From contig CAIKMJ010000041.1 of assembly GCA_903828455.1 (NCBI GenBank), positions 1 through 64,000 of the forward strand: DNA of 64,000 nt, written 5' to 3'. A model generated the notes under the pieces. That model was not told the origin of the DNA and did not search any database. It was given only the letters and a program-made list of their open reading frames with translations. This document shows positions 26,103-36,190 of this stretch, piece after piece (within the stretch, counting starts at the first letter, position 1; every line of letters begins with the position of its first letter). A program made the translations under genes and the position numbers. This DNA comes from an uncultured Acidobacteriia bacterium. Its GTDB lineage: Bacteria; Acidobacteriota; Terriglobia; Bryobacterales; Bryobacteraceae.

Positions 26103-26214
26103 CCTGCGGTTTGCTGCCTGAGCTTAGTTGCCTGAGCTTAGTTGCCTGCGCTTAGTTACCTGCGCTTAGTTACCTGCGCTTAGCTACCTGCGCTTAGCTA
26201 CCTGCGCTTGGCCC
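26103..26214. repeat. 14-bp tandem repeat at the 3' end of the methyltransferase gene
   Basis: Eight units of 14 bases begin at 26103, 26117, 26131, 26145, 26159, 26173, 26187 and 26201. The core is CCTGCGCTTAGTTA, and the units drift in pairs (CCTGAGCTTAGTTG twice, CCTGCGCTTAGTTA twice, CCTGCGCTTAGCTA twice). The last unit lies inside the minus-strand coding sequence and encodes its final Lys-Arg-Arg. The stop codon of that gene lies in the adjacent unit. The array fills the gap between the two convergent genes. Confidence 0.9.
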
Positions 26215-26947
26215 TGCCGTAAACCAGAAACATCTGATTCGGCAGAAAGTCGTGCCGGGCGACCGCGGTGAAACCGGCCTGCTTCATTTCGCCGTCGAGC
26301 TGTTCCGGGCTGAAGCGGAAGTCTTCGGGCGGGCCCATTGGTCCGCCATGCCGCCAGTCGATGATGGCGATGCGGCCGTTTGGCTTCAGCGACGCCGCCA
26401 GCCGCGCGAAATAAGCCGGGCGATTCGCGATGTGGTGGTAGGTATCGACGATGAGGATCCAATCCACCGGCTGGGGCAGGTTGGCCGACTCTGCAGTGGC
26501 CTGCACGGCGACGACATTCTTCAGCCCTTCCCCGGCGGCGCGACGCCGCAGGTGATCGACCATGGAAGGTTCAATATCGGCGGCGAAGACCTTCGGAGCC
26601 GCGGCCGATTTGGCCAGACGAACGGTGAAGTATCCGGTGCCCGCGCCGAGGTCGGCGACGGACTGGCCGTGCTTCAGGCCCAGAGCGGCGATCACCTGAT
26701 CCGGCTTCTGCCATTGATCGCGTCCGGGATCGTCGAACTCTTTGGCCCACTCGTCGGCATTTTCGAAATGCCGGTCCATGTGGCCGCCGGCGGCGACTCC
26801 GGGGTCGGCTGCGGCGGAGTGCATCTGGTTGTGGTCCATCTGGCTATGGTCCATGTGGGCGTGATCGGGGGATTCGGTCTGCGCGGCGCCGGTCAGCGCG
26901 AGACCTGAAAGCAGAAAGCCGATCATCCAGGCGGTTGTTCGGTTCAT
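26198..26947 (-). CDS. Exported class I methyltransferase-like protein with His/Met-rich N-terminus
   Basis: A 249-aa protein. Signal peptide 1-22 (Ala-Gln-Thr at the end), then a His/Met/Asp-rich stretch (DHAHMDHSQMDHNQMH, about residues 27-42), then a Rossmann methyltransferase domain with motif I VADLGAGTGYFTVRL, FAADIEPSMVDHL, and DTYHHIANRPAYF. The domain matches UbiE/arsenite-type small-molecule methyltransferases seen in Acidobacteria and Myxococcota. It lacks the Cys pairs of ArsM. A methyltransferase outside the cytoplasm would lack SAM, so either it is not exported or the fold has another use. It starts 15 bases after the VOC stop and ends the operon. Confidence 0.75.
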   Translation of the reverse strand: MNRTTAWMIGFLLSGLALTGAAQTESPDHAHMDHSQMDHNQMHSAAADPGVAAGGHMDRHFENADEWAKEFDDPGRDQWQKPDQVIAALGLKHGQSVADLGAGTGYFTVRLAKSAAAPKVFAADIEPSMVDHLRRRAAGEGLKNVVAVQATAESANLPQPVDWILIVDTYHHIANRPAYFARLAASLKPNGRIAIIDWRHGGPMGPPEDFRFSPEQLDGEMKQAGFTAVARHDFLPNQMFLVYGRAKRR

Positions 26948-26962
26948 GGCAAGCTCTCTCGC

Positions 26963-27286
26963 CTATTTGGGGGCGTTTCCCATGGAAGCCTGATCCAGAA
27001 TCTCCACGGCATTGCCGGATGGATCCTTCACATAAACCGACTGGGTACCGTCGCGGTGAATGGTCAGGGGGCCGAATTTTGCCGCGTCGGGGCTTACCAG
27101 CGCAAGGTGCGGCGGATGCTGGTGTGGCACCACCAGAGCGAGCCGGATGTTGGCGAACGCGAGGTAGGCCCAGGTGGGATCCTGATACTTCACTTCACAG
27201 CGAAAATTGCTGGTGTACCAGTCCACCGCCGCGGCGATGTCTGTGACGGACACGGCGACGTGATCGAGCGAGTCCAGTTCCTGCAT
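26963..27286 (-). CDS. VOC family protein (glyoxalase/bleomycin-resistance type)
   Basis: A 107-aa cytoplasmic protein consisting of one complete VOC domain: LDHVAVSVTDIAAAVDWYTSNF at the N-terminus, WAYLAFANIRLALV in the middle, and VYVKDPSGNAVEIL at the C-terminus. The His in DHVAV and the final Glu in VEIL are two of the usual metal ligands, so it may be a metalloenzyme. It follows the MBL-fold gene by 30 bases in the same orientation. Substrate unknown. Confidence 0.85.
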   Translation of the reverse strand: MQELDSLDHVAVSVTDIAAAVDWYTSNFRCEVKYQDPTWAYLAFANIRLALVVPHQHPPHLALVSPDAAKFGPLTIHRDGTQSVYVKDPSGNAVEILDQASMGNAPK

Positions 27287-27316: not shown

Positions 27317-28153
27317 TTACAGCGCCGCGACGAAGCCTTCCCAGGCCGCGGTGGTGTTCTCAAACTGGATGCGGGCGTTTTGTGCGATGCGCATCATGGC
27401 CTGATCGTCGTGGTTGGGGTCGTGGTGGAAGAGGATCAGATGATCCGCTTTGGCTTCGCGCGCCACGAAGACGGCGTTTTCCCAGGTGCTGTGGCCCCAG
27501 CCCTTGTGGGTTTCGTATTCGGCGGGGGTGTACTGGGCATCGCAGATGAGAATGTCGGCATTCTGCGAATATTCGAGCAGGATGTTGTCGTATTCCGGGA
27601 TGCCGTGCTCGTAGTCGGTGGCGTAAACAATCACGACGCCGTTGCATTCGATCCGGTAGCCGGATGCGCCCTGCGGGTGATTCAGCGGGAAGGGGCGGAT
27701 GTAGACATCGCCATCCGCTTTAATGCAGCCGCCGTTTTCGATCTGCTGGAAATCCCGTTTCGCGGCCACCTGGCCGAAATCGATGGGGAAGTAGGGCTTC
27801 GACATCTGCCCTTCGAGTGTTTCCTGCAGCGGCCGGCCGGTGGAACCGGAGTAGAACTGGACATGGTTCCGCGGCAGATACATCGGCGAGAAGAAGGGAA
27901 TTCCCTGAATGTGATCCCAGTGGAAGTGGGTCAGGAAGATCCGCGTGTTGATCGGTTCGCCGGCCGATTCCTGCAGCAGGGTCTGGCCGAGCGCGCGGAG
28001 TCCGCTGCCTCCGTCCAGAATGATGCATTCGTTGGCGGCGGTCCGAACCTCCACGCAGGCGGTGTTGCCGCCGAACTTGAGATTTTCTATCTGCGGGGTC
28101 GGCGTGGATCCACGAACGCCCCAGAATTTGAGCCTGAGCTGAGCACCATCCAT
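27317..28153 (-). CDS. MBL-fold hydrolase coupled to the caspase gene
   Basis: A 278-aa cytoplasmic protein (no signal peptide). The metallo-beta-lactamase core shows FLTHFHWDHIQG (His76, His78, Asp80, His81), LNHPQGASGYRIE, YATDYEHG, ICDAQYTPAEYE and LFHHDPNHDD. The layout is that of RNase Z-like and PhnP/class II-like phosphodiesterases. Its ATG overlaps the TAA of the caspase gene by one base (TAATG at 28151-28155 on the minus strand), so translation is coupled. Since a nucleotide cyclase starts the operon, a cyclic-nucleotide phosphodiesterase role is attractive, but this is inference from context. Confidence 0.85.
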   Translation of the reverse strand: MDGAQLRLKFWGVRGSTPTPQIENLKFGGNTACVEVRTAANECIILDGGSGLRALGQTLLQESAGEPINTRIFLTHFHWDHIQGIPFFSPMYLPRNHVQFYSGSTGRPLQETLEGQMSKPYFPIDFGQVAAKRDFQQIENGGCIKADGDVYIRPFPLNHPQGASGYRIECNGVVIVYATDYEHGIPEYDNILLEYSQNADILICDAQYTPAEYETHKGWGHSTWENAVFVAREAKADHLILFHHDPNHDDQAMMRIAQNARIQFENTTAAWEGFVAAL

Positions 28154-30969
28154 TAGAAGGCCATTTTAGACTGAATCCGCTTCCGGTCGCCTTTCCCGAC
28201 CTGGAGTTTGAGAGCGCTGGTATAAGCTTCGCGCGCTTCGTCCGGATGATTTCTCATCTTTTCGGCGTCGCCAAGCTGTTCCCAGAGCGACGCATTTTGT
28301 CCGTCCTGCTTTACCGCGACCCGCAGCAGTTCCGCGGCCGAATCCGGCTGGTTGGCCTTTACATACAATCCCGCAAGTGCCACCCTCGCCGCAACGTACT
28401 CCGGCTTTTGGGCGAGAACGGTGCTGTATTGTTCAATGGCTCCGGTGGTATCGCCGGTGGCGGTTAAGGTCTCGCCGAGGCTCAAACGCGACGCCAGATG
28501 ATTCGGTTCGATGGAGAGGTTCTGCCGCCAGGCCGCAATCGCCTCCGCCTGACGGCCTTTTTCGCTGGCCAGCAAAAGCGCGAGGTTGTGGCGGGCCGCC
28601 AGCAGGTTGGGATTTTTCTGCAGGGCGTCGCGGTAGAACTTTTCGGCTTCCGGTTTCTTGCCTTCCGACGCCTTCAGGGAACCGAGAGCGTTTAACGGTT
28701 CCGGCGACTCCGGAGCGAGGAACATCGCCCGCCGGTAGGCCGTTTCGGCTTCGCGCCGCCGGTTGATGCGCTGGTAGATGAGGCCGAGATTGTAGGGCAG
28801 ATAGCTGAACTGCGGCGTGATCTTCATGGCCGCCTGGTAGCTGCGGATGGCGCCTTCCGAGTTGCCCGATTCCACGTAGGACAGAGCCAGATTGTGGAGC
28901 GGATACGACCAGTTTGGCGCGCGCCGGGCGGCATCGCGGAAGGCCGGGATGGCCTTGGCGAAGTCGGCCTGTTCGAGGTAAGCGATGCCGAGGGCGTTGT
29001 AGCCGTAGGCTTCGCCGGGATCGGTGCGGACCGATTGCTCCAGAAGATTGGCGGCGGGGGCGTACTGTTTTTCAAACAGCATGGAGCGGCCTTTGAAGAA
29101 CGAGTCGCGGCCTTCCAGATAGAGCGATTCCGGGGTAAGGCGGAGCGCCGCTTCCATAAAGCGCGAACCGCCGTCGAAATCATCCTTCGTCTGCGGGTTC
29201 TGATCGCCGGCGAGGTAGCGCAGCAGGACCTGCTGGGCCTGATCTTCGAGCGCGACGCGCAGGACGTTTTCTTCGATGAGCAGGAGCCCGGGCGAGAGTT
29301 CGGTGCGCAGTTTGGCGAGCAGGTCCCAGGCGCTGCCCTGGTCTGTGGGGAGCAGGCGGCGCGCGGTGACGGCGGCGCGGAAGGCCTCCACATCCTGCGT
29401 GGCCTGCGGCGTGACGGCGGCCTGCTGGGGGCCGGCGATGTAGAGCGGCTCGCCGTTTCGCGAATCCCAGAGTGTCTTGAAGCGGGTGAGATTGATGCCC
29501 TGCTTGCTGAGGTCGGACAGCCGGGTGGCGTTTTCGATGCTGCCGAAGTCGCGCGGGTGCTGTTTATTGGCGGTCTCTTTGGGGACGGCGTCGCGCACGT
29601 AATCGATGATGTCGCCGGCCGTCACCTGCTGGGCTCCGTTCTTGGCCGCGAGGCCCTGCAGACCTTCGAGCAGCGACCAGGTGAAGGCGCCGTGACCGCC
29701 GCCGAACTGCGGTCCCTCAATGGCCAGTTCCTTCGGGCGCGCCGCCATGAGGCCGAGCATTTCGCCCTGCGCTTCCGCCAGCTTTTCCACGGCGGTGCCG
29801 ATGGAAACGCTCTTGATGTTGCCGATGGCCGCCGAACGGCAGATGTCGGCCATCAGCACCACGCGGCCGACTTTGGAAAGTTCGTCATCGACGAGCGCCT
29901 GAATTTCCGCCATGGGGATTGCGGTGGCGGACAGATCCTGCGGGTCGCTGTCGTAGGTCAGGACGTAGGCGCCGCGGCTGTCCACGGTGCCGTGTCCGGC
30001 GAGCAGGATGAAGACGGTGTCCTTTTTGCCGGCGCGGTTCTTCAGAAATGTCTGGAAGGCGTTGCGGACGGCGGCGGTGGTGGCGAATTCATTGGTCAGG
30101 ACCAGCATCTGGTCGGCGGGAACGCCGCCGCCGCGCACGCTGGAGAGGTGCTGGCCGAACGCCTTGGCGTCGGCATCGGCGTACTGCAGCCAGAGATCCT
30201 GGGGGAGCTTCTGGTATTTCGAGACGCCGATCATCAGCGCGTAGGTTTTGGCGTCCGGCGAAAGTTCAGCCGCTTTGATGGCGGCCTGGGTCGCGAGCGA
30301 TTCTTCCAGTTCGAAGATCCGGCCGCGCACCCAGACGGCGTCCTGCCAGTTTGTGGCGATCCTGCGGTAGGTGGCGAGGGCGTTGGCTTCGAGCTTGCGG
30401 CGATCGTAAATGGCGGCTTCCTGGACCAGGGCTCCGAGGTCGTTGGGGCTGTTCTTCAGGATGGCTTCGAACTGCGCGAGTTCAGCCTTCGCATCGGCGG
30501 GCAGGGCGTCGAAGGCGATCACGTCGCCCTCCGGTTTAGCGAGGCCGCGCGTCATGCTGACCCCGTAATGCTGCTGGCTGGCCACGGCCACGCGAACGAC
30601 CTGAGGGAGGAAGCAGGCGTTGACCGGCTTGGGCGCATCCAGCTTGCCGCTCTTTACTTTAAGCTGTTTCGGGTCGAGGACGACTTCGCCGCCGGCGCCG
30701 AGGGTCTGGTTGGCCTTGCTGGGGCAGTAGAGAAAGTTTGCGGCGGAGTCGGCGGCCTTGAGGGCGTCGCCGGAGAACAGGATGTCGCCGGCGCGGGCGG
30801 CAAGGGGAGTTTCGGTATTGGCGCGCAGGACCTTACCGCCGGTCGCCGAGAGAATCAGGCCGACCGGCTCTTCTTTCGTTTCCGCGGCGCAGAGCGCGGC
30901 CGTGGCGGCGAGCCCGAGACAGGCGAGCGCCGCAAATTTCCGGAATCGGGCGTAGTCAGCAGTTTTCAT
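28153..30969 (-). CDS. Exported FecR-like/caspase-fold/TPR protein
   Basis: A 938-aa protein with signal peptide about 1-29. Residues 35-110 resemble a FecR domain (GKVLRANTETPLAARAGDILFSGD, then a Lys-rich strand). Residues 240-480 are a caspase/metacaspase domain (peptidase C14): core strand TYALMIGVSKYQ, catalytic His326 in LLAGHGTVD and Cys377 in LMADICRSA. Residues about 600-930 are 8-9 TPR repeats (for example YGYNALGIAYLEQADFAKAI). Its ATG overlaps the TGA of the cyclase gene (ATGA). Caspase-like proteins with FecR and TPR parts next to CHASE2 cyclases occur in other bacteria, but their targets are mostly unknown. The catalytic dyad is intact, so protease activity is likely. Confidence 0.85.
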   Translation of the reverse strand: MKTADYARFRKFAALACLGLAATAALCAAETKEEPVGLILSATGGKVLRANTETPLAARAGDILFSGDALKAADSAANFLYCPSKANQTLGAGGEVVLDPKQLKVKSGKLDAPKPVNACFLPQVVRVAVASQQHYGVSMTRGLAKPEGDVIAFDALPADAKAELAQFEAILKNSPNDLGALVQEAAIYDRRKLEANALATYRRIATNWQDAVWVRGRIFELEESLATQAAIKAAELSPDAKTYALMIGVSKYQKLPQDLWLQYADADAKAFGQHLSSVRGGGVPADQMLVLTNEFATTAAVRNAFQTFLKNRAGKKDTVFILLAGHGTVDSRGAYVLTYDSDPQDLSATAIPMAEIQALVDDELSKVGRVVLMADICRSAAIGNIKSVSIGTAVEKLAEAQGEMLGLMAARPKELAIEGPQFGGGHGAFTWSLLEGLQGLAAKNGAQQVTAGDIIDYVRDAVPKETANKQHPRDFGSIENATRLSDLSKQGINLTRFKTLWDSRNGEPLYIAGPQQAAVTPQATQDVEAFRAAVTARRLLPTDQGSAWDLLAKLRTELSPGLLLIEENVLRVALEDQAQQVLLRYLAGDQNPQTKDDFDGGSRFMEAALRLTPESLYLEGRDSFFKGRSMLFEKQYAPAANLLEQSVRTDPGEAYGYNALGIAYLEQADFAKAIPAFRDAARRAPNWSYPLHNLALSYVESGNSEGAIRSYQAAMKITPQFSYLPYNLGLIYQRINRRREAETAYRRAMFLAPESPEPLNALGSLKASEGKKPEAEKFYRDALQKNPNLLAARHNLALLLASEKGRQAEAIAAWRQNLSIEPNHLASRLSLGETLTATGDTTGAIEQYSTVLAQKPEYVAARVALAGLYVKANQPDSAAELLRVAVKQDGQNASLWEQLGDAEKMRNHPDEAREAYTSALKLQVGKGDRKRIQSKMAF

Positions 30970-32894
30970 TTGGATTTTCCGGCGGCCTGCAGGGCAGCGG
31001 CTTCGGCCGCCGCGTTTTCGGCCGCCGCGTTTTCGGCCGCATGGGCGCGGATTTCGTCGGTCAGCAGGGAGGTGGCAGTGTAGAGTTTCATCGGTTCGGT
31101 CTTGCCGCGCACAGGGACGGCACCCAGGTAGAAAGTGTCGATCCGCCCCCCCAGCATTTCATGCGTCGAGCCGCTCATGAGCAATTTTGTTTTATTTTCC
31201 TTGTTCAGGCTTTCGAGGCGCGACGCCAGATTTACTGTATCGCCCAGCACCGTAAATTCCATTTTCTCAGCAGAGCCGACGTTTCCGATAACGACTTCCC
31301 CGGAATGCATGCCGGTTCCGGTTTTAAAATCGCCGGGCGCGGTCACCATTTCCACGGCGCAGGCGATGGCGCGGTAGGCGTGGTCGCCGGGTTTCGCATG
31401 GTCGTCGTCATCAGAAAACACGGCGAGGATACCGTCGCCGATGAACTTGTTGACGTGTCCGCCGTGCCGCACGATGATTTCGCACATGGTGCCCATATAG
31501 GTGTTGAGCAGGTCGACGACGACGGCCGGATCTTTGGATTCGCAGAAGGCGGTGAATCCGCGGATGTCGGAGAACATGATGGTCACGACCTGGCGTTTGC
31601 CGGTCTTGGAGATTTGTTCCGAGACGTCGAGGCTCTGCGCCACCTCCTTGCCGACGAAGATCGCGACGGCCGATTTGAAGAACGAACTCTTCTTTTCCGC
31701 CGTGATGAACCGGTAGATGGTGCCGCCGATGACGGCCATCAGGTAAACCAGGAGCAGATTGACGGTCGAGACGAGCCAGCCCTGGCGGAACATAAGGTGG
31801 GTCGCGGTGACGCCGACGGCCAGCACCAGAAGCGACCACGGTCCCGACCGGGAGGCGGCGAGCGACATCACGATGGCAACCGTGATCATCGACGTGAACA
31901 GCATTACGGTGGCGAGGAACCAGAAGGGCACTGGTTTGAGGAACTGGCCGGTGAGCAGCGTGTGGATGCTGTTGGCGTGGATTTCGACTCCCGGGGTCCG
32001 CCACTTGTTGGTCACGGTGAAGGCGGTGTAGAAGGGCGTGGCGTGACGGTCATCGATGTTATCGGGGCCAAGCAGAACGACCTTGCCTTTGAACCACTTT
32101 TCGAGTTGGGCCTTGTTGCCGGCGCGGGCGGCCTGTACGACGTCGAACAGGGACACGCGGGGGAAGGTGTCGGCCGGTCCGGCGTAGTTGATGGTCATGG
32201 TGCGCTGGTCGTCGACCGGAATTTCGCGGTCGCCGAGGTACATCCGGCCGTTGCGGAAGTTCACGTCCTTGCCGGTGAACTTTTCCACGGCGCGCATCGA
32301 CATGCTGCGGGTGAGCATTGAGGTGTCGACACCCGGCTTGGGGGATTCGATCAGTTCCTGGCGGCGCACGAAATCGTCCGCGTCGGCTGTGAGGTTCGCG
32401 TAGGCGGCCATGCCGAAGGCTGCCGACATCATGTTCAGGGGGACGGCGAAGGCGGGATTGGTCTGGTCGGCGGAGGAGGCGACGAAGGCGGTGACGACCG
32501 GCATGGTGGGGGCGGCGTAGTTAAACGCTTCGGCCAGCATGGGATCGTTGTCCGGCCGGCCGTAATTGGCCACCGGGACGCCGAAGGCAACGTCGAGCAC
32601 CATGGTCTTGCCGCCGCCATCCGCCGCGCCTTTAATTGCGGCAGCGTAGTAGGGCTGCCAGAAGAGCATGGGCTCGGAGAAATTGTTCATTGCCTTGTCG
32701 TCGATTCCGATCAGGACAATGTCTTTCGTTTCGGCCTTGCCGCGCAGGACGAAGTGGGAATCCTGCGCCTTCAGTTCGAGCAACTGAAAGAAGCGTATGT
32801 TGCCGAGCAGCAACGTGACCACCACACAGGCCACCGCGATGGCGGCCCCGATGCTCCATCGTTTCCAGTTCTTATTCATTTCCTTCAATTGCAT
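30966..32894 (-). CDS. CHASE2-containing class III adenylate/guanylate cyclase
   Basis: A 642-aa membrane protein: one N-terminal transmembrane helix (about 13-31), an extracytoplasmic CHASE2 sensor (about 40-320, with DIVLIGIDDKAM and MTINYAGPADTFPRVS), three transmembrane helices (about 330-400), and a class III cyclase domain (about 430-590). Metal Asp in MFSDIRGFTAF and GDGILAVF, substrate-contact Lys in NKFIGDG, and Asn/Arg in TVNLASRLE are present, which fits an active adenylate cyclase. The tail contains Ala-Glu-Asn repeats and looks disordered. ATG 32894 is used. ATG 32879 is an alternative. It is first in the minus-strand operon and divergent from a TonB receptor by only 44 bases. 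Confidence 0.92.
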   Translation of the reverse strand: MQLKEMNKNWKRWSIGAAIAVACVVVTLLLGNIRFFQLLELKAQDSHFVLRGKAETKDIVLIGIDDKAMNNFSEPMLFWQPYYAAAIKGAADGGGKTMVLDVAFGVPVANYGRPDNDPMLAEAFNYAAPTMPVVTAFVASSADQTNPAFAVPLNMMSAAFGMAAYANLTADADDFVRRQELIESPKPGVDTSMLTRSMSMRAVEKFTGKDVNFRNGRMYLGDREIPVDDQRTMTINYAGPADTFPRVSLFDVVQAARAGNKAQLEKWFKGKVVLLGPDNIDDRHATPFYTAFTVTNKWRTPGVEIHANSIHTLLTGQFLKPVPFWFLATVMLFTSMITVAIVMSLAASRSGPWSLLVLAVGVTATHLMFRQGWLVSTVNLLLVYLMAVIGGTIYRFITAEKKSSFFKSAVAIFVGKEVAQSLDVSEQISKTGKRQVVTIMFSDIRGFTAFCESKDPAVVVDLLNTYMGTMCEIIVRHGGHVNKFIGDGILAVFSDDDDHAKPGDHAYRAIACAVEMVTAPGDFKTGTGMHSGEVVIGNVGSAEKMEFTVLGDTVNLASRLESLNKENKTKLLMSGSTHEMLGGRIDTFYLGAVPVRGKTEPMKLYTATSLLTDEIRAHAAENAAAENAAAEAAALQAAGKSK

Positions 32895-32938
32895 CGTACT
32901 ATCGCGAGGAAATCAACAGTACACTTTAAGTATTGACT

Positions 32939-35900
32939 ATGCAGAGGGCAATCCGGCTCGCAGTATTGGGAACCATGGGATGGTTGGGGCTATTGGCGGG
33001 AACGGCCTGGGCCCAGACGACACAGGGGCTGATTTCAGGCAGTCTGGTGAATTCGGTGACCGGCCGGCCGGTGACGGCGGCCAGCGTAAGCTTTTCCAGC
33101 GAGACGCTGTCGGCGACCGGCGTATACCAGGCCGATGCGGCGGGGTATTTCTTTCTGCCGCTGCTTTCGCCGGGCACCTACTCGGTTCGCGCCACGGCGG
33201 CGGGGTACCAGACGCAGGAACTGCAGCAACTGGAACTGGCGGTAGCCGGGCGCATCCAGATCGATTTTAAGCTTCGGCCGCTGAGCGACGTTTGGGAAGC
33301 GGGCCAGTACCGCAGCGTCTTCCTGCCGGGCAGCAAGACGATTGTGACGTTCTACGGGCCTGACGTGGACACCAGCCGGTCCGGTTCGTTCGAGGGGCAG
33401 GCGGGGAAGCGGGGAACGCTGGATACGTCTGCGTCCTATGTGATCGATCCGGTGGAAATCGGCGAATTGCCGCTGCAGGGCCGCGATGTTTACTCGATGC
33501 TGGTGAGCCTGCCGGGAGTGACGGCCGACAGCGCAACGGGCCGTGGCCTTGGGGTCAGTGTGGCGGGACAGCGGCCCGCGGCATCGAACTATTTTCTGGA
33601 CGGGGTGGAAAACAACAACTATCTGGTCACGGGACCGTTGAACCCCGTGGCGCCGGAGGCGGTGCAGGAGTACCGGATATCGACGAACAACTATTCGGCC
33701 GAATACGGGCGCACGGCGGGCTTCGTGGCGAACGCCATTACGCGGGCGGGCGGTCCGGGGTATCACGGGATGCTTTACGAATATCTGAAGAACGACGCGC
33801 TGAACGCCGCGGATTTTGCGGACAATCTGGTCGGCTACGGGCGGCTACCGGAAAAGGAGCACCAGTTCGGGTATCAGGCGGGCGGTCCGATTCTGAAGAA
33901 GCGGCTGTTCTTTTCGAGCGCACTCGAAAAGCTGATGAGCCACAGCGCGCAGAACCCGCAGACCTACACGCTGCCGACAACCAACTTTATTCCGGCGCTC
34001 AATCTGCCGGCGACCCGCATTGCGCGCCAGTTGCTGCAGCAGTATCCCGGCCCGGCGATTGTTTCGCCGACCGGGGCGCTGACGGCCAGCTATACGGTGG
34101 CTTCGCCGGTGGTGGTGAACCGGCTGGTTGGGCTGGAGCGTTTTGACTACACGCCGACCAATGGGCGCAACCGTCTGATGGGACGCCTCAATCTGGCCCG
34201 CGTGAATGAGCCGGATTTCATCTGGACGCCCTATACGGCCTTCAATTCCGCGCTGTATCAGAACACGACCGGCGGAATGGTGAACTGGACGCACACCTGG
34301 TCGCCGCGGGTGACGAGCGAAGCGAAGGTGAGCTATTCGGACGACAACCTGTGGTGGGACCGGCCGCACCCGGAAGTGCCGACACTGGCTTCGGGGGACG
34401 GGACGCTGCTGCCGGGCAGCCCGGCGTTTTACGCGTACCGGAATCACAACAAATCTTTCGAAGCCCTGTACAGCACGGTCTGGACCCGCAACAAGCATGT
34501 GATCACGGGCGGCGCCGGCATGCTGCTCCGCTTCAACAGCGGCTATCTGACGGCGGGCCGGGACGGGCTGTATACGTTCCCGAGCGTGCTGAGCTTTGCA
34601 TTCGACCGGCCGCAGTATTTCCAGGCGACGATCGACCGTTTCAATCCGATTCCGACGCTGCCGCAGTTCGACCGCAGCTATCAGTACACGCAGAGTTTCT
34701 TCTTCCTGCAGGACAGCTGGCGCGCGACGTCCCGGCTGACGGTGAATTTCGGGATGCGCTACGAGCGCTTCGGCGCGCCGAGCAACACGGGGAGCGTGAA
34801 AGATGCGCTGGTGACGCTGGGCGCGGGCGGCGATTTCAATGAGCGGCTGGCTTCGGCGACCTTCGCGGTGCCGCAGGGCGGGGGCAATCAACAGATTTTC
34901 GGTACCGACGGCATGAACTTTGCGCCGCGGGCCGGATTTTCCTGGGATCCGTCCGGCAAGGGGCGGACGGTGCTGCGCGGCGGATTCGGCATCTTCTACG
35001 ACCGGCCGTTCGACAACCTCTGGCAGAATGTGCGAAGCAACGGACTCGTGCTGCCGCTGTACACGGTGCCGGGTGCGGGTGCGGTGAATTATCTGACGCC
35101 GATTGCGACGGTATTGCCGAGCTACGCGAACCAGGCGCAGAATCCGCCGTTTCCCGGCCTCACCCTGATGGATCCGAGTCTGCGCAACGGGTATTCGCAG
35201 AGCCTCTTTCTCGGCGTGCAGAAGGAAGTCGGGGATAATCTGACGATTGCCGTGACCGGGACGGCGGCGGAAGCACGGCGACTGCTGACGACGGACATCG
35301 TGAACCGGCAGTTTACGACTTTGATCGGCGACGGGCGGCCGAACGAAGCGCTGCCGGACGTCTACTGGCGGTCCAGCCAGGGCTTTTCGAGCTACACGGC
35401 GCTGACGACTCTGGTGAAGTACCGGCTGCGTACCCTGCAACTGCAGGGCTCGTATACCTGGAGCCATTCCATCGATAACCAGAGCGATCCGCTGACCGGC
35501 GACTTTTTCGACCTGAACTTTACGACGCTCGACAGCGCATCGACGGCGCCGCGCGCCACTTTCGCGCAGCAGTTCAACAGCCAGGGAGACAAGGGCAATT
35601 CGGATTTCGATCAGAGGCAGAATTTGTTTCTGCTGGGAACCTGGCAGTCGGAAGGCCAGCGGTTGCTGACACGGGGCTGGCGGGTGTCCTTCCTCGCGGC
35701 GTTCCGGACCGGGTTTGCGTACAGCGTGCTGGGCAACAGTTACGGCGGGGTGCCGGATTTCGGCAGCAGCTTTATCGAAAATCAGCGGGCCAGCCTGACG
35801 GGTCCGGCATTTCTGACGACGCCGAAGCCGACGAAGGGCGGCATCCTGGTGCTGAACGCCAACGGATTTACCAATCCGGACGATCCGAGCATTGTGGGTA

Positions 35901-36190
35901 CCATCGGGCGCAACGCTTTCCGCGGACCGGGTCTCTACAACGTGGACGTGTCGCTTTCGCGGACCTTCAGCCTGCCGAAACTTCCGGAAGGCAGCCGGCT
36001 GACGGTGCGGGCGGATGCGTTCAACGTGCTGAACCACGCCAACCTGAACAATCCGGATAATCAGCTGAGCGATCCGAACTTCGGCGTCGAAACGTATGGA
36101 CGCCAGGGAGCGCCGTCCGGCTTCCCGGCCACCACGCCGCTGAACGAATCGGCCCGCCAGTTCCAGATTCTGCTGCGCCTCGAATTCTGA
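32939..36190 (+). CDS. TonB-dependent receptor (Oar-like), second copy
   Basis: A 1083-aa outer-membrane protein. ATG 32939 is preferred to a TTG two codons upstream. Signal peptide 1-25, carboxypeptidase-regulatory-like domain (about 28-105, LISGSLVNSVTGRPVTAASV), plug with ELPLQGRDVYSMLVSLPGV, then a barrel with RLTVNFGMRYERFG and FNVLNHANLNNP, ending in ILLRLEF. There is no strong RBS. The 44-base gap to the divergent cyclase must contain promoters for both, so they may be regulated together. Ligand unknown. Confidence 0.9.
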   Translation: MQRAIRLAVLGTMGWLGLLAGTAWAQTTQGLISGSLVNSVTGRPVTAASVSFSSETLSATGVYQADAAGYFFLPLLSPGTYSVRATAAGYQTQELQQLELAVAGRIQIDFKLRPLSDVWEAGQYRSVFLPGSKTIVTFYGPDVDTSRSGSFEGQAGKRGTLDTSASYVIDPVEIGELPLQGRDVYSMLVSLPGVTADSATGRGLGVSVAGQRPAASNYFLDGVENNNYLVTGPLNPVAPEAVQEYRISTNNYSAEYGRTAGFVANAITRAGGPGYHGMLYEYLKNDALNAADFADNLVGYGRLPEKEHQFGYQAGGPILKKRLFFSSALEKLMSHSAQNPQTYTLPTTNFIPALNLPATRIARQLLQQYPGPAIVSPTGALTASYTVASPVVVNRLVGLERFDYTPTNGRNRLMGRLNLARVNEPDFIWTPYTAFNSALYQNTTGGMVNWTHTWSPRVTSEAKVSYSDDNLWWDRPHPEVPTLASGDGTLLPGSPAFYAYRNHNKSFEALYSTVWTRNKHVITGGAGMLLRFNSGYLTAGRDGLYTFPSVLSFAFDRPQYFQATIDRFNPIPTLPQFDRSYQYTQSFFFLQDSWRATSRLTVNFGMRYERFGAPSNTGSVKDALVTLGAGGDFNERLASATFAVPQGGGNQQIFGTDGMNFAPRAGFSWDPSGKGRTVLRGGFGIFYDRPFDNLWQNVRSNGLVLPLYTVPGAGAVNYLTPIATVLPSYANQAQNPPFPGLTLMDPSLRNGYSQSLFLGVQKEVGDNLTIAVTGTAAEARRLLTTDIVNRQFTTLIGDGRPNEALPDVYWRSSQGFSSYTALTTLVKYRLRTLQLQGSYTWSHSIDNQSDPLTGDFFDLNFTTLDSASTAPRATFAQQFNSQGDKGNSDFDQRQNLFLLGTWQSEGQRLLTRGWRVSFLAAFRTGFAYSVLGNSYGGVPDFGSSFIENQRASLTGPAFLTTPKPTKGGILVLNANGFTNPDDPSIVGTIGRNAFRGPGLYNVDVSLSRTFSLPKLPEGSRLTVRADAFNVLNHANLNNPDNQLSDPNFGVETYGRQGAPSGFPATTPLNESARQFQILLRLEF

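What the first reader, a model, noticed from the sequence alone, without database searches (positions are those of the whole stretch)
27317..32894. Translationally coupled cyclase-caspase-MBL operon: possible nucleotide-signalled protease system
CHASE2-class III cyclase (stop/start overlap ATGA), FecR-caspase-TPR protein (overlap TAATG) and MBL-fold hydrolase form one coupled unit. The cyclase would make a cyclic nucleotide, the caspase-like protein has an intact His/Cys dyad and FecR and TPR parts that could bind partners or ligands, and the MBL protein could break down the nucleotide. This is a complete sensor-effector-off-switch layout, resembling stress or defence modules but not matching one I can name.
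Basis: partly seen in the sequence, partly recalled or inferred. Interest (0 to 1): 0.75.

Follow-up and report, generated by a model that had tools for sequence, protein, structure and literature searches.

The report
Caspase-linked envelope cAMP relay
A soil bacterium carries a coupled set of genes that probably reports the state of its outer membrane to the cell interior with cyclic AMP, using an exported caspase-like protease as the go-between; distant relatives have a different protease beside the same kind of receptor.

Summary
The coupled cyclase, caspase-TPR and MBL genes are real and intact. The caspase protein has a signal-peptide-like start in every row examined, so it should lie outside the cytoplasm with CHASE2, while cyclase and MBL activities lie inside: direct nucleotide control of the caspase is unlikely. 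The MBL is adjacent only in the window's genus (5 of 29). Four genomes with the cyclase but no caspase protein keep a stand-alone copy of its N-terminal module, which weakly resembles MtxA, itself encoded beside a CHASE2 cyclase. Of 26 CHASE2 cyclases from other families, 13 adjoin an exported M48 protease and 7 a FecR protein; 5 also have an MBL and 11 an MscS-type channel with a cNMP-binding domain. Best reading: a CHASE2 cAMP circuit that reads an exported partner, here fused to a caspase-TPR protein tied to an outer-membrane barrel. Biochemistry is untested and direction inferred. New variant of a known kind.

The parts
30966..32894 (-). CHASE2 class III nucleotidyl cyclase (642 aa; alignment suggests the real start may be Met6)
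   Evidence: Pfam CHASE2 and Guanylate_cyc; Asp443, Lys483, Asp487, Thr548, Asn555, Arg559 invariant in 16 of 16 rows; their roles (metal, adenine-type substrate choice, transition state) are recalled
31884..32831 (-). CHASE2 sensor domain, predicted to face the periplasm
   Evidence: one search places PF05226 here; hydrophobic segments near residues 15-33 and 327-393; outward orientation is family knowledge
28153..30969 (-). Exported N-module + caspase + TPR protein (938 aa)
   Evidence: model mean pLDDT 82.8
30274..30882 (-). N-module: beta domain with Cys82/Cys119 plus helices (about residues 30-232); exists as a stand-alone gene after the cyclase in other genomes
   Evidence: Cys82 in 39 of 39 and Cys119 in 36 of 39 rows; MtxA match E 3.6e-4; match to FecR-containing partners, probability 71%
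30544..30582 (-). Conserved, poorly ordered motif ASQQHYGVSMTRG (residues 130-142)
   Evidence: invariant in 18 of 18 rows of A1; pLDDT under 50 at 135-144; His-Tyr-Gly or Gln-Tyr-Gly in 26 of 26 caspase rows from genomes with a cyclase orthologue, 0 of 9 without
29554..30246 (-). Caspase (Peptidase_C14) domain, His326 and Cys377
28159..29112 (-). TPR superhelix (about residues 620-937)
27317..28153 (-). Cytoplasmic MBL-fold hydrolase, putative cyclic nucleotide phosphodiesterase
   Evidence: Pfam; His76, His78, Asp80, His81, Asp180, His243 invariant in 13 of 13 rows; no signal-peptide-like start
32933..36190 (+). Divergent TonB-dependent-receptor-like outer-membrane protein (ATG start at 32939 likely)
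   Evidence: Pfam OMP_b-brl_4 2.7e-110, Plug, CarboxypepD_reg; orthologue in 28 of 29 genomes with the caspase protein; no other long match in this genome above 31% identity
36240..38609 (+). Ser/Thr protein kinase with TPR, possible further member
   Evidence: same order in L002; kinase matches near the caspase gene in L069, L072, L074

Best explanation
This is an envelope-to-cytoplasm cAMP relay built around a CHASE2 cyclase. Outside the inner membrane, the exported protein uses its TPR and caspase parts to engage a dedicated outer-membrane barrel protein (the divergent gene) or its damaged or ligand-bound form. Its N-module, the part shared with stand-alone cyclase partners, contacts the CHASE2 domain and sets cyclase activity, probably by binding and possibly after proteolysis. 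The cyclase domain then makes cAMP inside the cell, where one of five cNMP-binding proteins reads it, and the MBL enzyme breaks it down. Shown here: gene content, coupling, predicted topology, intact active-site residues, co-occurrence, and recurrence of exported protease or FecR-type partners beside CHASE2 cyclases. Inferred: the contacts, the direction of the signal, that the cyclase makes cAMP, that the MBL destroys it, and that the caspase cuts something.
For: Signal-peptide-like start on the caspase protein, none on the MBL, hydrophobic segments flanking CHASE2. Cyclase adjacent to the caspase gene in 17 of 29 family genomes and, in a partly overlapping set, 17 of 18 contig relatives. Barrel orthologue in 28 of 29 caspase genomes versus 6 of 121 others, four of which have a divergent caspase-TPR relative, and within 5 kb of a caspase gene in 20 of 29 (in G106 and G131 beside a second, divergent copy). 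Four genomes with the cyclase but no caspase protein have an exported N-module directly after it (ORFs read in G100, G015, G082; G145 by tblastn); the three placed on the cyclase tree branch at the base of this group. Similarity of the module to MtxA, whose gene is followed by a CHASE2 cyclase gene (PMC4439547 Introduction). In S. meliloti the outer-membrane barrel NsrA acts upstream of CHASE2 cyclases (PMC13001267 passages), and FecR-domain protein SMc02177 is, by its number, next to cyaD1 (SMc02176) (PMC5498481 passages). Of 26 other CHASE2 cyclases, 13 adjoin an exported M48 protease (11 by Pfam, L155 and L160 by tblastn) and 7 a FecR protein (6 by Pfam, L180 by tblastn); 11 of those 13 also adjoin an MscS-type channel with a cNMP-binding domain (10 of 10 scanned confirmed), and 5 an MBL.
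Against: The M48 and MBL neighbours all came from the first 20 CHASE2 loci (best E-values); the second 20 gave 0 M48 and 0 adjacent MBL. Same-genus pairs inflate the counts (13 M48 loci are 11 genera; 5 MBL loci are 4; genus codes). The MBL is not tied to the caspase outside one genus. Ten of 29 genomes have the caspase protein without a cyclase orthologue, so the protease has a role that needs no cyclase. The motif-cyclase correlation rests on about three evolutionary events and is not significant. The barrel shows no STN signalling domain. No cNMP receptor gene was found among the neighbouring genes scanned. No contact between any of the proteins was tested.
Confidence: 0.5

Rival explanations
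1. Outer-membrane maintenance first: the caspase-TPR protein is a quality-control protease for outer-membrane barrels, working like BepA (M48 + TPR, recalled), and the cyclase is an add-on that reports or adjusts the load.
For: Barrel co-occurrence is the tightest of the three partners tested, and the barrel sits next to the caspase gene where no cyclase orthologue was found (L073-L076). The M48 neighbours of other CHASE2 cyclases match BepA best in NCBIfam (4 of 4 scanned), far below its cut-off.
Against: One barrel subfamily is linked, and no BAM part was identified beside it; an N-module follows the cyclase without any protease attached.
Confidence: 0.2
2. Uptake control: the barrel imports a substrate, the exported caspase digests or matures it, and cAMP tunes uptake genes.
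For: The neighbour is a TonB-dependent-receptor-like protein with Plug and CarboxypepD_reg; large Ig/BACON surface-type proteins lie near the caspase gene in several relatives.
Against: No transporter or glycosidase was seen to recur among the neighbours identified (most other neighbours were not annotated).
Confidence: 0.1
3. One reading: the cyclase product activates the caspase, and the MBL switches it off.
For: Intact cyclase, caspase dyad and MBL motif.
Against: Signal-peptide-like starts place the caspase across the membrane from the nucleotide; no nucleotide-binding domain found in the caspase protein.
Confidence: 0.06
4. Anti-phage module related to Pycsar.
For: PADLOC PycC models match the cyclase domain, best 4.2e-26.
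Against: Cyclase carries the Lys/Thr pair expected of an adenylyl cyclase (meaning recalled) and a CHASE2 sensor, and none of the eight genes scanned looks like a PycTM or PycTIR effector.
Confidence: 0.04
5. Neighbours without functional coupling: co-transcription of unrelated envelope genes.
For: Adjacency of MBL, cyclase and barrel changes along the caspase tree: 1, 3 and 7 changes.
Against: Overlapping codons at the cyclase-caspase junction in 8 of 13 relatives measured (the other 5 within 12-41 bases) and at the caspase-MBL junction in 8 of 12 (the other 4 within 0-7 bases) (L015, misread there, left out); recurrence of exported partners beside CHASE2 cyclases.
Confidence: 0.1

Closest known systems
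S. meliloti NsrA / CyaD1-CyaD2-CyaK / Clr system, with FecR protein SMc02177 and TPR protein SMb20495
   Same: Outer-membrane barrel acting upstream of CHASE2 cyclases; FecR-domain and TPR extracytoplasmic proteins in the same regulon (PMC13001267 and PMC5498481 passages)
   Different: No caspase named; the FecR and TPR proteins were not found to be needed for signal perception there (PMC5498481 passages); dedicated Clr regulator; barrel family not compared here
MtxA and its CHASE2 cyclase neighbour in magnetotactic bacteria
   Same: Exported beta domain + TPR-like protein encoded next to a CHASE2 adenylate cyclase; the N-module matches MtxA at E 3.6e-4
   Different: No caspase; [quoted passage not shown]
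BiofilmReg operon of Burkholderia (FecR/LysM protein + CHASE2 histidine kinase)
   Same: CHASE2 receptor encoded with an exported FecR protein (PMC5192318 passages)
   Different: Histidine kinase output, no protease, no cyclic nucleotide
M48 protease - CHASE2 cyclase - MBL - MscS/cNMP channel loci in other families of the phylum (L160, L162, L164, L165)
   Same: Exported protease, CHASE2 cyclase and an MBL 34-40% identical in one row
   Different: Unrelated protease class; adds a channel with a cNMP-binding domain; cyclases belong to other branches
BepA-type periplasmic protease
   Same: Protease + TPR layout, outer-membrane setting (recalled)
   Different: Zinc M48 instead of a Cys/His caspase fold
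Xanthomonas-type metacaspase
   Same: About 100 kDa metacaspase + TPR protein, also reported from Ca. Solibacter and Koribacter (PMC3501461 section 10)
   Different: Its defining polysaccharide deacetylase domain is absent here

Membership tests
CHASE2 class III cyclase | CHASE2 domain plus class III catalytic domain | tested here: met
CHASE2 class III cyclase | Catalytic Asp pair, Lys/Thr, Asn, Arg intact | tested here: met
   invariant in 16 of 16 rows; roles recalled
CHASE2 class III cyclase | Makes cAMP | not testable with these tools
   needs enzyme assay
Metacaspase / orthocaspase (C14) | Caspase fold with His/Cys dyad | tested here: met
Metacaspase / orthocaspase (C14) | Cleaves after Arg/Lys | not testable with these tools
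   needs protease assay
Fec-type FecA/FecR/FecI signalling | FecR domain | tested here: inconclusive
   Pfam FecR absent; remote match to FecR-containing partners, probability 71%
Fec-type FecA/FecR/FecI signalling | STN domain on the outer-membrane receptor | tested here: not met
   not among the Pfam matches of the barrel at E 0.01
Fec-type FecA/FecR/FecI signalling | Adjacent ECF sigma factor | tested here: not met
   none among the eight genes scanned around the unit; seen beside the caspase gene in relatives L072 and L074
Pycsar | PycC cyclase with adjacent PycTM or PycTIR effector | tested here: not met
   PycC models match the catalytic domain; no such effector recognised among the eight genes scanned with Pfam
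Xanthomonas-type metacaspase | Polysaccharide deacetylase domain | tested here: not met
EACC1-associated caspase (NF047832) | Score over the curated cut-off | tested here: not met
   76.5 bits against 140
Cyclic nucleotide-degrading MBL phosphodiesterase (NF041851) | Score over the curated cut-off | tested here: not met
Cyclic nucleotide-degrading MBL phosphodiesterase (NF041851) | HxHxDH metal motif | tested here: met
   13 of 13 rows
MtxA-type CHASE2 partner | Exported beta + TPR-like module encoded beside a CHASE2 cyclase | tested here: inconclusive
   context met; sequence similarity weak, E 3.6e-4; Foldseek E 0.094, rank 5

The most novel reading that the evidence does not exclude
CHASE2 domains in general do not sense small molecules but an exported partner protein, and one branch of this class is protease-gated: a protease outside the inner membrane (caspase in Bryobacteraceae, M48 elsewhere) converts the condition of an outer-membrane barrel into cytoplasmic cAMP, giving bacteria a caspase-driven second-messenger pathway across the envelope.
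Probability: 0.22. Interest if true: 0.85.

Novelty: new variant of a known kind. Interest (0 to 1): 0.62.

Why it matters
What CHASE2 receptors sense was stated as not known in a 2016 paper seen here in passages (PMC5192318), and the roles of bacterial caspases are described as varied and largely open (PMC3501461 passages). This locus links both and narrows the CHASE2 question to a testable claim: the input is an exported partner whose N-module can stand alone or be fused to a caspase-TPR protein, with M48 proteases or FecR-TPR proteins beside related receptors. It also supplies a small stand-alone N-module (about 220-230 aa) and compact operons that can be moved to a laboratory host for direct cAMP readout.

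Tried and rejected
Caspase self-cleavage at Arg141 in the invariant SMTRG motif: weakened, because the motif is largely kept in stand-alone N-modules that have no caspase (L101 and L103; mostly lost in L104).

Motif-cyclase correlation as proof of contact: His/Gln-Tyr-Gly in 26 of 26 caspase rows from genomes with a cyclase orthologue and 0 of 9 without; L012 was left out of this count because its genome's cyclase status was unknown, and stand-alone modules keep it in 2 of 3. The tree gives only 1 independent pair on starred branches (3 on all), so it is a hint, not a test passed.

M48/MBL as a general companion: a second set of 20 CHASE2 loci, lower in the E-value list, had 9 cyclases, no M48 and no adjacent MBL (one MBL 3.5 kb away in L177); 5 of the 9 instead had a FecR-TPR protein. 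The two sets were not random draws.

The caspase-TPR layout is not unique to this family: caspase and TPR matches share one open frame in G477, and tblastn shows caspase plus TPR-region matches in 7 of 20 loci from other families (L078, L081, L086, L090, L094, L097, L099; L086 and L099 are one protein); none of the 20 shows a cyclase match in its short flanks.

Structure library search of the N-module alone gave no match at E 0.001 or better. PDB sequence search with the full caspase protein showed TPR matches in the 60 rows listed of 158. Consensus promoters and terminators in the region were no more frequent than in shuffles.

Published description: no paper with this gene set appeared in the listings of ten searches of an open-licence library that lacks most subscription journals.
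Full report
OBSERVATION. Pfam identifies CHASE2 plus a class III cyclase domain, a caspase domain plus a TPR array, and an MBL domain. The window lies in a 4.4 Mb genome in 80 contigs. That it is an acidobacterium of the Bryobacteraceae is inferred from the titles of its close relatives (Bryobacterales/Acidobacteriia/Terriglobia metagenome-assembled genomes); the genome itself is unnamed.

TOPOLOGY. By hydropathy, every caspase row in both alignments (24 and 18, overlapping) begins with a signal-peptide-like segment and has no other membrane-like stretch. The 13 MBL rows have none. The cyclases have a segment within residues 5-33 in 14 of 16 rows and one or more between about 317 and 397 in all 16. 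The caspase, TPR and N-module are therefore predicted to be on the same side of the inner membrane as CHASE2, and the cyclase catalytic domain and MBL on the other. This speaks against direct activation of the caspase by the nucleotide. No signal-peptide predictor was available, so this is hydropathy plus family knowledge.

WHICH NEIGHBOURS BELONG. Among 18 contig relatives (one search gave 19; L020, which matches only the caspase domain, is left out), the cyclase is adjacent in 17 (in L010 as a fragment at the contig end; absent in L012), the MBL in 12 (L018 is cut before it could appear), and the barrel lies within 1.5 kb of the unit in 10; in L005, L008, L010 and L018 the contig or stored flank limits the view, and in L006, L007, L009 and L019 it is not there. 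In 150 family genomes, 37 match the caspase profile at E 1e-60: 29 with the full or split protein, 3 divergent, 5 with the caspase domain only (classed by me; five candidates scored per genome). Of the 29, 28 have the barrel orthologue (E 1e-150), 19 the cyclase (E 1e-60), 15 the MBL (E 1e-60). Fisher values are 2e-23, 2e-13 and 1e-5, not corrected for relatedness. Adjacent to a caspase gene: barrel 20 of 29 (within 5 kb), cyclase 17, MBL 5, all in the window's genus (5 of 5). The window barrel has no long match above 31% identity elsewhere in its genome, so it is a distinct subfamily. Its likely ATG is about 45 bases from the cyclase's annotated start, in a divergent arrangement.

ORDER OF ASSEMBLY. 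On the caspase tree the MBL label needs one change, cyclase adjacency three, barrel adjacency seven (quick tree with some long branches). Deep caspase relatives (L073-L076) sit beside the barrel and their genomes gave no cyclase orthologue. In the other direction, G100, G145, G015 and G082 have the cyclase but gave no caspase-profile match; the cyclase is followed by an exported protein of about 220-230 residues that aligns only with residues 32-230 (the G145 copy was seen by tblastn only). On the cyclase tree the three of these included (L101, L103, L104) branch at the base of the caspase-linked group. The simplest reading is that cyclase + N-module and barrel + caspase-TPR are two older pairs that are joined in this lineage, with the MBL last.

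WHAT THE N-MODULE IS. Pfam gives no FecR match in 12 members at E up to 10, only a weak DUF7354 in 8 of 12. The only PDB sequence match at E 0.01 or better is MtxA, E 3.6e-4, and MtxA is also fifth in the fold search though not significant (E 0.094). The MtxA paper's Introduction and one Results section, which I read, say that mtxA is followed by a gene with adenylate cyclase and CHASE2 similarity and that MtxA has a signal peptide (PMC4439547). Profile comparison with FecR-TPR proteins beside other CHASE2 cyclases gives probability 71%. I call it FecR/MtxA-like, not FecR. Over the phylum sample of 396 genomes its profile hit two family genomes, plus one weak match to the helical part only in another family (G462, E 6.5e-6).

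CHASE2 CYCLASES ELSEWHERE IN THE PHYLUM. CHASE2 was found in 73 of 247 genomes. I examined 40 CHASE2 loci outside the window's family in two sets of 20, taken roughly from the best E-value down, one locus per genome, with skips that were not by a fixed rule; some share a genus (for instance L156/L158 and L160/L162). 26 are cyclases by motif (17 and 9). Beside these 26: an exported M48 protease in 13 (11 by Pfam, L155 and L160 by tblastn; L161 divergent), a FecR-domain protein in 7 (6 by Pfam, L180 by tblastn; signal-peptide-like start seen in 5, not assessable in L180 and L181), another exported protein in 4 (FlgT_N-like in L187-L189, two by Pfam; an FG-GAP/DUF11 protein in L157), nothing identified in 2 (L169; L175 near a contig end). 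M48 active-site HExxH is present in all 10 checked. Five loci have M48, cyclase and MBL (L155 cut at the contig end). Eleven M48 loci add an MscS-type channel with a cNMP-binding domain (tblastn; Pfam confirms both parts in 10 of 10 scanned; that such channels are nucleotide-gated is recalled). In a control of 55 other loci (858 kb, some overlapping, all but the Calothrix locus L020 from the window's family) no M48 match was found, and MBL matches were the caspase-linked ones plus L066 and L070. M48-linked cyclases fall in two groups on the cyclase tree, and the label needs three changes, which may be gains or losses. So unrelated proteases, M48 and caspase, stand beside CHASE2 cyclases in different branches.

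MECHANISM. The arrangement fits a relay: outer-membrane barrel, exported protein with TPR and caspase, N-module on CHASE2, cAMP, receptor, MBL. The S. meliloti precedent (barrel NsrA upstream of CHASE2 cyclases; passages of PMC13001267) shows that a barrel can act upstream of CHASE2 cyclases. There a FecR protein and a TPR protein of the same regulon were not found to be needed for perception (PMC5498481 passages), which counts against assuming that every exported partner is a sensor. The window genome has five cNMP-binding matches, two of which look like Crp-type regulators on reading their sequences; none was found among the genes scanned around the unit.

VERDICT. A real, intact locus, seen in one family only in the samples searched, that extends a known kind (CHASE2 receptor with exported partner) by a caspase-TPR protein and a dedicated barrel.

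Noticed in passing
L058:4232-5113 (G000:C62): Stand-alone caspase paralogue (293 aa, His/Cys dyad intact, hydrophobic N-terminal stretch) in the same genome; the same kind of gene lies directly behind the caspase-TPR gene in L059 and L060.
   Followed up: partly
L160, L162, L164, L165: Four-gene row: exported M48 protease, CHASE2 cyclase, MBL, MscS-type channel with cNMP-binding domain; looks like a complete cyclic nucleotide circuit.
   Followed up: partly
L177:1335-8073: FecR-TPR protein coupled to a CHASE2 cyclase, followed by a protein kinase with a cNMP-binding domain.
   Followed up: no
L072 and L074: ECF sigma factor and Ser/Thr kinase matches beside the caspase gene (in L074 the sigma gene lies between caspase and barrel genes), a Fec-like arrangement with a caspase.
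   Followed up: no
L067, L069, L071, L073, L075, L076: Very large Ig/BACON-repeat surface-type proteins near the caspase gene in several relatives.
   Followed up: no
L100:3079-6311 (G000:C5): The genome's only other CHASE2 match lies in what reads like a histidine kinase, followed by an NtrC-like regulator; named from the sequence, not scanned.
   Followed up: no
window 26198-27286: Glyoxalase-fold and methyltransferase genes follow the MBL on the same strand; the glyoxalase is also next to the MBL in L003 but about 2 kb away in L008 and L019.
   Followed up: no
L174:6428-8056: A subtilase with a hydrophobic N-terminus lies next to a FecR-linked CHASE2 cyclase on the opposite strand, a third protease class near this receptor type.
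   Followed up: no
G477:C531 (L086, L099): Caspase and TPR matches in one 1312-aa frame in another family of the phylum, without the N-module match and with no cyclase match nearby.
   Followed up: no
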